From contig JAFDCW010000007.1 of NCBI GenBank assembly GCA_019312705.1, positions 1 to 20,385 on the forward strand: a DNA stretch of 20,385 nt, written 5' to 3'. How positions within the stretch are numbered: the stretch's first letter is position 1; each line of letters starts with the position of its first letter. Position numbers and translations under genes: made by a program. The notes under the pieces are model-generated. The model searched no databases, was not told the origin of the DNA, and saw only the letters and a list, made by a program, of their open reading frames with translations. Shown in pieces: positions 11,531 through 15,619 of the stretch. The stretch is from Deltaproteobacteria bacterium (lineage in GTDB: Bacteria; Myxococcota; Polyangia; Polyangiales; B10-G4).

Positions 11531-11791
11531 ATGGCCCTCGATGATACCAACGACCCCCGAGGTCCCAAGCTCCTCCGGCGCCTCGAGACGTTCCTCGATG
11601 TGTCCTACGCCCTGCTCTTCGTCGAGATGCTGCGCCAGCTCCCGCGGACCGAGGATTTCGATCCAACGAGCGACGCTTTCGGGATTCTTCGCATCTTCAT
11701 CGATCGACCCACGGACATGAAGTGGCTCCTGACCAAGATCCTCGGGGGAGAAGGAAACGCACACGAAGAGGACGAGCCCGTCACCCCATGA
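11531..11791 (+). CDS. Short membrane-associated protein, possibly a truncated TMEM175-like protein
   Basis: An 86-residue protein with one hydrophobic segment at about 22-38 preceded by LLRRLETFLD. This is reminiscent of the first helix of TMEM175/DUF1211 channels, whose signature begins RLExFSDG. In such proteins several further helices would follow; here the frame ends soon after TDMKWLLTKIL with an acidic tail. Two readings are open: a genuine small protein, or a gene cut by rearrangement at its junction with the CPBP gene, whose stop lies 11 nt inside this frame on the other strand. The ATG at 11531 has only a weak, distant AGGA upstream. The family link is from memory and weak. Confidence 0.5.
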   Translation: MALDDTNDPRGPKLLRRLETFLDVSYALLFVEMLRQLPRTEDFDPTSDAFGILRIFIDRPTDMKWLLTKILGGEGNAHEEDEPVTP

Positions 11792-12524
11792 CGAGCTGAT
11801 AGGCAACAAGCATCAAGAAGGCGTCGACACAGAGGTGGCTCAGCCAGCCGCCCAGGACGGTCCCCTGTCGTTCGTACATGACCGTCCAGAGCAGGCCGCC
11901 GACGGCCACCGCGACGGCCATGAAGACGGCGAGCCCGACGGAGAAGAACTGGAGCGTGAGGACTAGGTGGTGGGCTGCAAAGGCGACGGCTGCGATCCCG
12001 TGCGCTACCCACGGGCGGCACTTCTCGCGGAGCTGACCGTAGACGAAGAAGCGCCAGTAGTACTCCTCGAGGCCCGAGTGGATCACGGAGATGAAGATCG
12101 CGAAGAGCACGAAGTGCTGACGGAACCCGAGGGCCTCCGCTTTGTCGGTGGCCGCGCCGGCCCCCTGGCGCACCAGGTCACCGAGAGGCGTCAGCATGAG
12201 AACTACGCCGAGGCCCGCGATCAGCACGCCCGAGCCGAGGCCCGTGAGCAGCACCGCCCGGCGCGACGGCCACTTTGCCTGCTGATCATCGCGTCTGCGG
12301 GTGAGGCCGTTTACGCCAATGCTTCCCAGGAAGAAGAGCGGATAGACCAGCGTGAAGACCTTAGTGAGCGTGTAGGCCGCCTGCCCCAGCGCGCCTTCGG
12401 GCACCCAAACGAAGTAGATGAGCGAACCGAACAACGGCACCACCAAAGCCGGCAGCAGCGCCAGCCAGCCGATCGAACGCGACGTGAAGTGATCGGAGCG
12501 GAGAGCAAGGGCAGAAGTTCGCAT
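11781..12524 (-). CDS. CPBP-family intramembrane glutamic protease
   Basis: A 247-residue multi-pass membrane protein with about six to seven hydrophobic helices. The CPBP (CaaX protease/Abi) catalytic motifs are present in order: EEYYWR with Glu153, Glu154 and Arg158, FAAHH at about 182-186, and HLCVD with His230 and Asp234. These motifs match Rce1-like and bacteriocin-immunity-like members, which cut substrates within the membrane; the substrate is unknown. I chose ATG 12524 because it starts a plausible short basic N-terminus; an in-frame ATG at 12560 adds a Cys-rich stretch and neither has a good ribosome site. The gene is convergent with the short membrane protein and overlaps it by 11 nt. 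It lies downstream of the palindromic element on the same strand as the two regulators. Confidence 0.87.
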   Translation of the reverse strand: MRTSALALRSDHFTSRSIGWLALLPALVVPLFGSLIYFVWVPEGALGQAAYTLTKVFTLVYPLFFLGSIGVNGLTRRRDDQQAKWPSRRAVLLTGLGSGVLIAGLGVVLMLTPLGDLVRQGAGAATDKAEALGFRQHFVLFAIFISVIHSGLEEYYWRFFVYGQLREKCRPWVAHGIAAVAFAAHHLVLTLQFFSVGLAVFMAVAVAVGGLLWTVMYERQGTVLGGWLSHLCVDAFLMLVAYQLVMG

Positions 12525-12648
12525 GGGATGCCCGCAGCATCTGCGAGAGCCGTGCCACACGACATCCCCTGACTATTTCGAGAACCTCGCCCGCACGACG
12601 CCGGGCGCCGAACCTCACCTGTACACGGCACGCAAGACCGCGAGCATC

Positions 12649-12658: not shown

Positions 12659-12680
12659 AGCGGGACGCGCGACCGGTGCG

Positions 12681-12805
12681 GAAAAGGCGTCCACTTGCGT
12701 CAGTCACCGAGCGCGCCCGCAGGGGCCGACCGAGCCGTACCCTTCGTACGGCGACCGAGGTTCCGAGGACGTAAGCCGGTGAATGGCGTGAGTGGGCGCC
12801 TTTTC
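12681..12805. repeat. 125-bp near-palindromic element able to form a long structured RNA
   Basis: Bases 12681-12702 pair with 12784-12805 without a break (22 pairs, four of them G-U in a plus-strand RNA). One mismatch follows, then six more pairs (12704-12709 with 12777-12782). Inside are a perfect 7-bp hairpin (GCCGTAC/GTACGGC, 12734-12740 with 12746-12752), flanked by the direct repeat CGACCGAG, and a 4-bp hairpin (12715-12726). The outer ends are GAAAAGG and CCTTTTC. The last two bases of the NtrX-like gene's stop codon lie inside the right end. It may be a terminator for the regulator operon, a small non-autonomous repeat, or a non-coding RNA. No coding frame is evident in it. Confidence 0.75.
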
Positions 12806-14173
12806 ACTCGCCGCGCTTGATTCCTAGGGCCTTCATCTTCTTGTAGAGATGGCTGCGCTCGAGGCCGAGGCCGGCGGCGGTGTTGGTGATGTGGCCCTTG
12901 TTGTGCTCGAGGGCGCGGAGGACTAGGTCTCGCTCGGCCTCTTCGAGCATCTCCCGAAGCGGGCGGTCGGGCCGGTAGTAGCCGCCGCCGGTGCGGCCGC
13001 CGCCACCGATGGGCAGGAACGCCCTGGCGTCCGCTTCGGTTACGGCGTCGCCGGGGGTCAGGATGACCAGGCGTTCGATGAGGTTCTTCAGCTCGCGCAC
13101 GTTGCCCGGATAGTCGTAAGCGCCGAGTTGTTTGAGAGCACCGTCCGAGAGCGTCTTGCCTCGACGGTCGTTGACCTCGCAGGCGAGCCTGAGAAACGCC
13201 GACGCCAGGAGCGGGATGTCTTCTTTGCGCTCTCGAAGCGGGGGTACCCGGAGCGGAAGCACGTTGAGTCGATCGTAGAGGTCCGCCCGAAACTCGCCCT
13301 CGTCGATGGCCTCGAGGAGGTTCTTGTTGGTCGCTGCGACGACGCGCACGTCGACCTCGATGAGGTCACCGCCGCCGACTCGCTCGATTTCGTTTTCCTG
13401 GAGGACCCGCAGGAGCTTCGCCTGCATCGCCGATGGCATGTCCCCGACCTCATCGAGGAAGAGGGTACCGCCGTCGGCCCGCTCGAACTTGCCCCGGCGC
13501 TGCTTCGTCGCGCCGGTAAACGCCCCAGCCTCGTGGCCAAAGAGCTCGCTCTCGATGAGCTCCCTCGGGACCGCCGCGCAGTTGAGCTTCTCGAGGCGCC
13601 CGTCGGCCCGTTTTGACGACTCGTGAATCGCTCGGGCGACGAGCTCTTTGCCGGTTCCTCGTTCGCCTTGAATGAGGACCGTCGCCTGCGCGCTCGCCGC
13701 GAGGGCGATACGCTCCTTGAGCTCGCGTATCGGGGCGCTCTCACCGAGCAGCCCAGCTGTCGCCCCGGCTCGACGCTTGAGCTCGGCGTTCTCGGACTCG
13801 AGCTTGCGAAAGCCTAGGCAACGGTCGATGGAGAGCAGCAGGCGCTCGGTATGGATCGGCTTCTCGATGAAGTCGTGGGCGCCGAGACGTGTCGCCTCCA
13901 TCGCCGTCTCGATGCTGCCGTGGCCGCTCATCACGATCACCGGCACGTCGTTGCCCTGCTCGCGGAGGCGACGCAACATCTCGAGGCCGTCCATGCCAGG
14001 CATCATCACGTCGAGGAGCAAGAGGTCGTAGGCGGCCTTCTGCACCTTGTCGAGGGCGATGCCAGCGTTGCCGGCGACGTCGACCTCGAAGTCCTCGATA
14101 CGCAGCGCCCGGGACAATGCACTGAGGATGTTCTTCTCGTCGTCGACGACGAGCAGGGAGCCATTGCTATGCG

Positions 14174-14177
<4 letters not shown>
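12804..14177 (-). CDS. NtrC-family sigma-54 response regulator (NtrX-like)
   Basis: A 457-residue regulator. Receiver domain 1-120 has the acidic pair D12/D13, phosphoacceptor Asp56, Ser85 and Lys106. The AAA+ domain, about 143-375, has Walker A GERGTGKE (171-178), GAFTGA (218-223) and Walker B LFLDE (239-243), followed by a Fis-type helix-turn-helix at about 414-452 ending in [15 protein letters not shown]. The GAFTGA loop contacts sigma-54, so this should activate sigma-54 promoters after phosphorylation. The C-terminal helix resembles NtrX. The start is GTG 14177, which overlaps the upstream stop as GTGA, with AGGAG 8 nt before it. It is the last gene of a coupled four-gene block. No histidine kinase is nearby. 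Confidence 0.93.

Positions 14178-15615
<1,438 letters not shown>

Positions 15616-15619
<4 letters not shown>

What the first reader, a model, noticed from the sequence alone, without database searches (positions are those of the whole stretch)
12681..12805. Long near-palindromic intergenic element with wobble pairs biased to one strand
The outer arms pair over 28 positions with one mismatch. All four non-Watson-Crick positions in the first 22 pairs are G-U if the plus strand is transcribed, but A-C mismatches in a minus-strand RNA; the single outer A-C beyond the sixth inner pair points the other way. An internal perfect 7-bp hairpin is flanked by an 8-bp direct repeat. The right end supplies two bases of the upstream gene's stop codon, as palindromic repeats inserted at gene ends often do. 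It could be a multi-copy repeat, a structured small RNA, or an unusually elaborate terminator. I do not recognise it as a known RNA family.
Basis: partly seen in the sequence, partly recalled or inferred. Interest (0 to 1): 0.7.

Follow-up and report, generated by a model that had tools for sequence, protein, structure and literature searches.

The report
Stop-codon hairpin repeats in myxobacteria

Summary
In detail: 12681-12805 folds at -80 kcal/mol on + (z -7.7) and -63.5 on -. It is not a single-copy terminator. The close relative G141 carries at least 35 placed copies and has a different palindrome at the orthologous ntrC end. A covariance model built from 24 G141 copies plus the window matches 72 of 317 genomes of the class at E<=0.001 (50 at E<=1e-8), with up to 134 matches in one genome. 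Rfam has no match (only sub-threshold miRNA models). Conserved are the length, an apical core (CGAGCGCSCCCGCAG...CGAGGASGWAAGCCG) and pairing; the 28-bp outer stem is free in sequence but covaries strongly. On + G.T outnumbers A.C 139:4, 107:6 and 183:12. Orientation is nearly fixed: in 117 of 126 cases with a called right neighbour that gene is read towards the element, so the better-folding strand is its template strand. Best reading: a dispersing, non-autonomous hairpin element recognised through the template-strand fold; ssDNA versus RNA is undecided. In other genomes the core rides in small TIR-bounded units.

The parts
12681..12805 (+). whole hairpin element (family A), 125 nt; + is the strand whose fold is conserved
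   Evidence: 137.7 bits on +, 43.6 on -; the window is in the model, so the score is not independent
12681..12709 (+). left arm of the outer stem; outermost ~10 bp site-specific, sequence otherwise free
12777..12805 (+). right (gene-side) arm; TTTTC runs on into sequence shared with the element-free G141 site
12708..12722 (+). 5' half of the conserved apical core, CGAGCGCGCCCGCAG
   Evidence: strict core on both sides in 88 of 104 copies
12764..12778 (+). 3' half of the conserved apical core, CGAGGACGTAAGCCG
12727..12734 (+). direct repeat CGACCGAG, first copy (one side of a symmetric internal loop)
   Evidence: unpaired in the folds
12752..12759 (+). direct repeat CGACCGAG, second copy
12734..12752 (+). 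apical 7-bp hairpin
   Evidence: two-sided changes among copies
12804..14177 (-). NtrC-type response regulator whose stop codon (12806-12804) overlaps the element's right end
11781..12560 (-). downstream gene, CAAX (Rce1-like) protease family; the element lies about 120 nt before its called start

Best explanation
12681-12805 is one copy of a non-autonomous, dispersing hairpin element family of Myxococcota. SHOWN: many copies at mostly unrelated genes; near-constant length; conserved apical core; free but covarying outer stem; near-fixed orientation with one end at a stop codon; the strand whose fold is kept is the template strand of the abutting gene. INFERRED: the element is recognised as a folded single strand, most likely single-stranded DNA during movement, by a factor encoded elsewhere that reads the apex, much as integron integrase reads the folded attC bottom strand; copies survive at stop codons because they do little harm there. 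The outer ~10 bp seem to be re-specified per site in some genomes, perhaps by copying the host sequence at the gene end into the far arm. No mobilising enzyme was identified.
For: G141 has 39 BLAST matches at E<=1e-5 (some are second pieces of one copy) and 35 distinct right-strand copies in the loci. Right-side proteins are mostly unrelated (117 proteins all-against-all; exceptions: the nrdJ group, a few 27-38% paralogue pairs, one orthologue pair). Right neighbour read towards the element: 48 of 49 (G198), 27 of 32 (G141), 42 of 45 (other); its stop lies within -13..+9 nt of the end in 36 of 48, 22 of 27 and 36 of 42; the mirror case on the left (plus-strand stop in that range) is 1 of 27, 2 of 17 and 7 of 25. 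G.T:A.C on + 139:4, 107:6, 183:12. + folds better in 103 of 104. Nested and composite palindromes. Sharp outer boundary in 25 of the 50 G198 copies, those with the anchor motif. The same core inside TIR units with equal TNA triplets at both sides in 12 of 14 copies with both flanks (read by eye), + folding better in 14 of 14.
Against: No true empty/filled pair was found: the four G180 sites compared with G178 are deletion remnants or chimeras. Six orthologous copies behind nrdJ keep their pairing by two-sided changes in place (11 of 45 pairs), which looks like selection on site rather than parasitism, or templated repair of palindromes. No general target duplication (9 of 25 against 7.1 expected in G141, 18 of 50 against 14.0 in G198; 12 of 25 against 5.8 for 5-mers in G141, chosen; 14 of 50 against 12.0 in G198). 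Y1 transposases only loosely co-occur (50 of 72 element genomes, 105 of 245 others; 22 carriers without, among them G194, G196 and G201, not corrected for kinship). In the G452 and G467 units the + fold has fewer G.T pairs than the - fold (2 against 4, 3 against 4). In one G178 subfamily the arms are constant, not site-specific.
Confidence: 0.45

Rival explanations
1. A structured RNA is made from the + strand (antisense to the gene end), for instance as a barrier against antisense or convergent transcription entering the gene, and its fold is selected in place.
For: G.U-tolerant pairing on one strand, the argument used for the L17 downstream element (passage of PMC2864571); conserved unpaired core positions; pairing kept in place behind nrdJ; about half of the called left neighbours run on + and would transcribe it (25 + 13 + 21 convergent cases against 18 + 11 + 17 tandem ones).
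Against: In the tandem cases, the window included, no called neighbouring gene transcribes +; outside ten pairs the left flank of the G198 subset is not conserved, so no shared promoter is evident; no Rfam match; copies decay in G180.
Confidence: 0.27
2. A REP-like element acting in the sense mRNA: a hairpin at the stop codon that stalls ribosomes, sets translation or protects the 3' end from decay.
For: Position: E. coli REPs within 15 nt of a stop codon are reported to stall ribosomes and lower translation, nrdAB among the cases (passages of PMC12306157), and here a nrdJ-type gene carries the most persistent copies. The sense strand still folds strongly in the window (-63.5 kcal/mol).
Against: The kept fold is that of the other strand: wobbles are A.C in the sense RNA, and the sense strand folds worse in 103 of 104 copies, by 19.3, 11.4 and 13.3 kcal/mol on average in the three sets.
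Confidence: 0.2
3. An intrinsic (bidirectional) terminator, unusually long.
For: AAAAGGCG...CGCCTTTT ends in this copy; the scan calls a + strand site at 12785-12800.
Against: Multi-copy and spread over a class; T-rich 3' tail at only 4 of 104 + and 8 of 104 sense ends.
Confidence: 0.03

Closest known systems
REP/BIME palindromes and RAYT (Y1) transposases
   Same: Many dispersed palindromes at gene ends, nested or composite, G.T pairs in stems, ends that can supply a stop codon (passages of PMC3733652); REPs within 15 nt of stop codons (passages of PMC12306157)
   Different: About 125 nt instead of 20-40; no GTAG at either foot in 104 of 104 copies; nearly fixed orientation; conserved part is the apex; Y1 enzymes not obligatory
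integron attC sites
   Same: Sited behind genes (recalled), structure rather than sequence conserved, only the bottom strand of the folded site is used (passages of PMC2727003); here too the better-folding strand is the one complementary to the coding strand
   Different: No R-box-like pair at the two ends in 104 of 104 copies (box consensus recalled); dispersed, at core genes such as ntrC and nrdJ, not in cassette arrays as far as seen
MITEs (small TIR-bounded non-autonomous elements)
   Same: In G452, G537, G441, G527, G403 and G467 the core lies in units with TIRs and mostly equal TNA triplets
   Different: The window type has no TIR/target duplication of that kind; arms vary by site
L17 downstream element (candidate structured RNA)
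   Same: Structured motif just behind a gene, more stable on one strand through G-U pairs, transcribed strand uncertain (passage of PMC2864571)
   Different: Tied to one gene; this family is behind many; no Rfam match

Membership tests
REP (GTAG/CGTC superfamilies) | unpaired GTAG (or CGTC) tag at one foot of a short hairpin | tested here: not met
   GTAG within 8 nt of either foot in 0 of 104 copies; stem 28 bp against 5-13 bp (passage). CGTC occurs inside the window's stem only, not as an unpaired foot (by eye); not tested in other copies
REP (GTAG/CGTC superfamilies) | dispersed multi-copy extragenic palindrome | tested here: met
RAYT-mobilised element | co-occurrence with, and flanking of, a Y1 transposase gene | tested here: inconclusive
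   50 of 72 carriers and 105 of 245 others have PF01797 (Fisher odds ratio 3.0, p 9e-5, kinship not corrected); the two Y1 genes of G141 show no A copy beside them by eye
integron attC | R boxes (RYYYAAC/GTTRRRY, recalled) at the two ends | tested here: not met
   0 of 104 copies have both, 3 of 104 have one; none in the window element
integron attC | strand-selective folding of the strand complementary to the gene | tested here: met
   (folding by RNA energies; recombination not testable)
integron attC | integron integrase in the genome | not tested
MITE | terminal inverted repeats with a direct target duplication | tested here: inconclusive
   12 of 14 TIR-carried copies in six other genomes have equal triplets (by eye); window type: no general duplication
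intrinsic terminator | GC-rich hairpin followed by a T-tract | tested here: not met
   family: 12 of 208 ends; this single copy does look like one
known Rfam family | match above the curated score | tested here: not met
   0 matches at gathering score in the window; best E 0.36 to a miRNA model far below its cut-off; 0 at E<=0.5 in five family loci

The most novel reading that the evidence does not exclude
A new kind of mobile DNA hairpin that targets stop codons: it is recognised as single-stranded DNA of the gene's template strand through a conserved apical core, and at each insertion its outer arm is rewritten to match the host gene end, giving site-specific inverted arms instead of a direct target duplication.
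Probability: 0.25. Interest if true: 0.85.

Novelty: new variant of a known kind. Interest (0 to 1): 0.62.

Why it matters
It makes a general question testable: do some bacterial interspersed palindromes live as folded single-stranded DNA, as RNA, or as translation or termination signals? It offers hundreds of natural copies at known positions in genomes whose small mobile DNA is little studied, and it warns that stem covariation alone does not prove an RNA gene.

Tried and rejected
Distant relatives first: six myxobacterial genomes gave only chance-level matches to the element (best E 0.01), and eight relatives showed no such element behind the orthologue by eye; BLAST of the element against 30 orthologous loci hit only the coding part in L091 and L112 and short chance pieces. 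It looked like a single-copy feature until G141 was found and searched whole.

Target duplications; the G141 signal used a narrower window picked after and is exploratory.

Mobiliser: the two Y1 genes of G141 are not flanked by A copies by eye; the second has its own ends (GGGGACGGTATAAACTTTCTCAC). Autonomous version: the TIR pattern in three genomes showed paired ends about 180-200 bp apart; many unpaired ends, often near contig edges, leave the question open.

G178/G180 as an insertion/empty pair: rejected; the four sites compared are remnants or chimeras. Deletion between short repeats explains the junctions (inference).

Cautions. R1 and R2 describe one long hairpin, so weak matches may be unrelated palindromes; even the wrong strand of true copies scores 42-55 bits, so the genome totals (45, 134 and so on at E<=1e-5) may count some copies twice; 96 of the 134 G198 matches are listed, all at different places. 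Of the 72 genomes, 29 besides G141 were checked by sequence; only the best 11 candidates per genome were scored there. Gene calls are from my own codon-usage caller; the 'other' set of 49 rows includes the window, ten orthologous nrdJ copies and one copy entered twice (L201/L282). Alignments A3, A4, A6 and A9 were fitted to the model's structure; A2 was aligned by sequence. The outer-arm profile dropped 25 of 50 G198 copies that lack the anchor motif, among them a subfamily with fixed ends. One search had no positive control in its own set. Energies are RNA parameters only.

Full report
WHAT IS THERE. The palindrome at 12681-12805 lies between an NtrC-type regulator gene (12804-14177, -) and a Rce1-like protease gene (11781-12560, -). 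No whole genome is held for the window.

IT IS ONE COPY OF A FAMILY. A protein search in the class of a relative gave G141, whose NtrC is 97% identical over 457 residues. G141 holds 53 BLAST matches to the element at E<=10, 39 of them at E<=1e-5, some being second pieces of one copy, and 45 model matches at E<=1e-5; 35 distinct right-strand copies lie in the loci scanned. The window holds just this one. At the orthologous spot G141 has another palindrome (here B, GGGGACGCGTGATTGCTTAATTGCATTACC...), whose arm also stands beside several A copies; a third hairpin, C, is nested inside several A copies. These are mosaic, nested palindromes.

DISTRIBUTION. Model R1 (24 G141 copies and the window) matches 72 of 317 genomes of the class at E<=0.001, 50 of them at E<=1e-8. 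In 12 genomes searched more deeply the matches number 4 to 134. A broader model, R2 (57 sequences), matches 39 of 377 genomes drawn from the phylum at E<=1e-8 and 0 of 40 in a mixed set outside the class, two Anaeromyxobacter among them, at E<=1e-4. The class includes Polyangium sp. 15x6 and MAGs labelled Myxococcales, Polyangiaceae and Polyangia.

ANATOMY. Length is 125-126 nt in 25 intact G141/window copies, 123-127 in the best copy of 29 other genomes and 118-126 in 50 G198 copies. The apical core is conserved; a strict form of it is present on both sides in 88 of 104 copies (23 of 25, 45 of 50, 20 of 29). The outer stem is free in sequence but paired. In 32 matches from other genomes 94.4% of 1416 cells pair, 37 of 45 pairs show two-sided change, and covariation is 0.735 against 0.173 +- 0.011 in shuffles and at most 0.116 when slid (alignment fitted to the model). 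In the sequence-only alignment of 25 G141/window copies the figures are 98.2%, 23 of 45, and 0.323 against 0.121 +- 0.008, at most 0.056 when slid.

THE OUTER ARM. In the 25 G198 copies with the anchor motif, Watson-Crick or G.T pairing is 23-25 of 25 over ten positions and then 5-11 of 25; the outermost two pairs are among the least conserved yet are still paired. In G141 the end is similarly sharp, and outer arms read GAAAAGG, CCAATGG, TGAATCG, GCCCTGG and so on, each with its own complement. In one G178 subfamily the arms are constant. In the window, TTTTC of the right arm continues into a stretch shared with the A-free G141 site. That the gene-side arm is host sequence and the far arm its copied complement is an inference from this.

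ORIENTATION AND POSITION. In three sets the right-hand gene is read towards the element in 48 of 49, 27 of 32 and 42 of 45 called cases, with its stop codon within -13..+9 nt of the element's end in 36 of 48, 22 of 27 and 36 of 42. The left side shows this far less (1 of 27, 2 of 17, 7 of 25 plus-strand stops in that range). So the element is asymmetric in use though nearly symmetric in sequence.

WHICH STRAND. Wobbles on + are G.T in 139, 107 and 183 cells against 4, 6 and 12 A.C. + folds better in 25 of 25, 49 of 50 and 29 of 29 copies. + is the template strand of the abutting gene and hence not in its mRNA; where the left gene is also on - (as here) no called neighbour transcribes +. This argues against a role selected in the sense mRNA and leaves ssDNA or an independent RNA.

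HISTORY AT ONE LOCUS. Behind a nrdJ-type ribonucleotide reductase gene (named from its sequence, recalled) the gene end could be read in 19 of 20 loci (G157 not). Six carry type I copies (G178, G177, G171, G184, G185, G176), three type II (G169, G181, G175), G183 and G180 II/I chimeras, G182 a truncated copy, G177 a second element in tandem; G173 shows only TGACGGGCCCTCAG; G174 (partly masked there), G167, G202, G163 and G141 show no A-type copy by eye; G198 has its own subtype a few nucleotides behind the stop, an independent arrival. Types I and II share the outer arm CTGACGGGG/CCCCGTCAG in several genomes though their inner stems differ. Among the six type I orthologues 11 of 45 pairs changed on both sides, covariation 0.247 against 0.111 +- 0.019. 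In G180, close to G178, the four sites compared are remnants or chimeras, and one scored match remains.

CARRIERS. In G452, G537 and G441 the same core sits in ~180-bp units with ends AGAGGGTGTRKYCAAA; other ends occur in G527, G403 and G467; equal TNA triplets flank 12 of 14 copies with both flanks (by eye). The end pattern occurs 36/37, 32/27 and 9/9 times (forward/reverse, one mismatch allowed) with 0 for the reversed control. + again folds better in 14 of 14, by 0.5 kcal/mol in the G467 copy; in the G452 and G467 copies the - fold has the more G.T pairs, against the general bias.

MOBILISER. Y1 transposases are associated but not obligatory. None was tied to the element.

LITERATURE. Passages only were read in PMC2864571, PMC2727003, PMC3733652 and PMC12306157; all other papers were seen as listings. 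Searches of the held open-access library on palindromic repeats in myxobacteria, attC, stop-codon MITEs, REP/RAYT, structured RNAs in Myxococcota, repeats in Sandaracinus/Sorangium/Polyangium and attC in Polyangia listed no such family; that is no proof that it is unpublished.

VERDICT. A real, conserved, dispersed hairpin family, new as far as these tools show. It works like a folded-strand mobile element (attC- or REP-like) but fails a defining test of each. Mechanism is open: ssDNA element 0.45, + strand RNA 0.27, sense-mRNA control 0.2.

Noticed in passing
L328-L342, L345, L346 (G537, G452, G441, G527, G403, G467): The same hairpin core inside ~180-bp TIR-bounded units with three or more different end sequences and mostly equal TNA triplets outside.
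   Followed up: partly
L091 about 1200-1500, and left of A copies in L122, L126, L128, L129, L136, L139, L141, L149, L150: A second palindrome (B) stands where the window has A; its arm AATTAAGCAACCACGCGTCCCC adjoins many A copies in G141. The window's left flank (12662-12675, GGGACGCGCGACC) resembles its end.
   Followed up: partly
L123, L129, L148, L150, L152, L153, L155, L156, L158: A third hairpin (C, core AAGGCGAAAGGGCGACGTCAGTCGACCGGAGC) is nested inside A copies at several positions, with its own variable but matching outer arms.
   Followed up: partly
L171:870-1940 (-) and L172:1345-2349 (+): Two Y1-type (RAYT-like) transposase genes in G141; the second lies between inverted ends GGGGACGGTATAAACTTTCTCAC.
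   Followed up: partly
L296, L287, L289, L349 (G180) against G178: A close relative in which the A copies compared have decayed by deletion or recombination while G178 keeps intact ones.
   Followed up: yes
L176:931-1192 (G177): Two A elements in tandem behind the nrdJ-type gene, a likely source of the type I/II chimeras in G180 and G183.
   Followed up: partly
window 14174-14177: Two NtrC-like regulator genes (12804-14177 and 14174-15619, both -) overlap by four bases.
   Followed up: no
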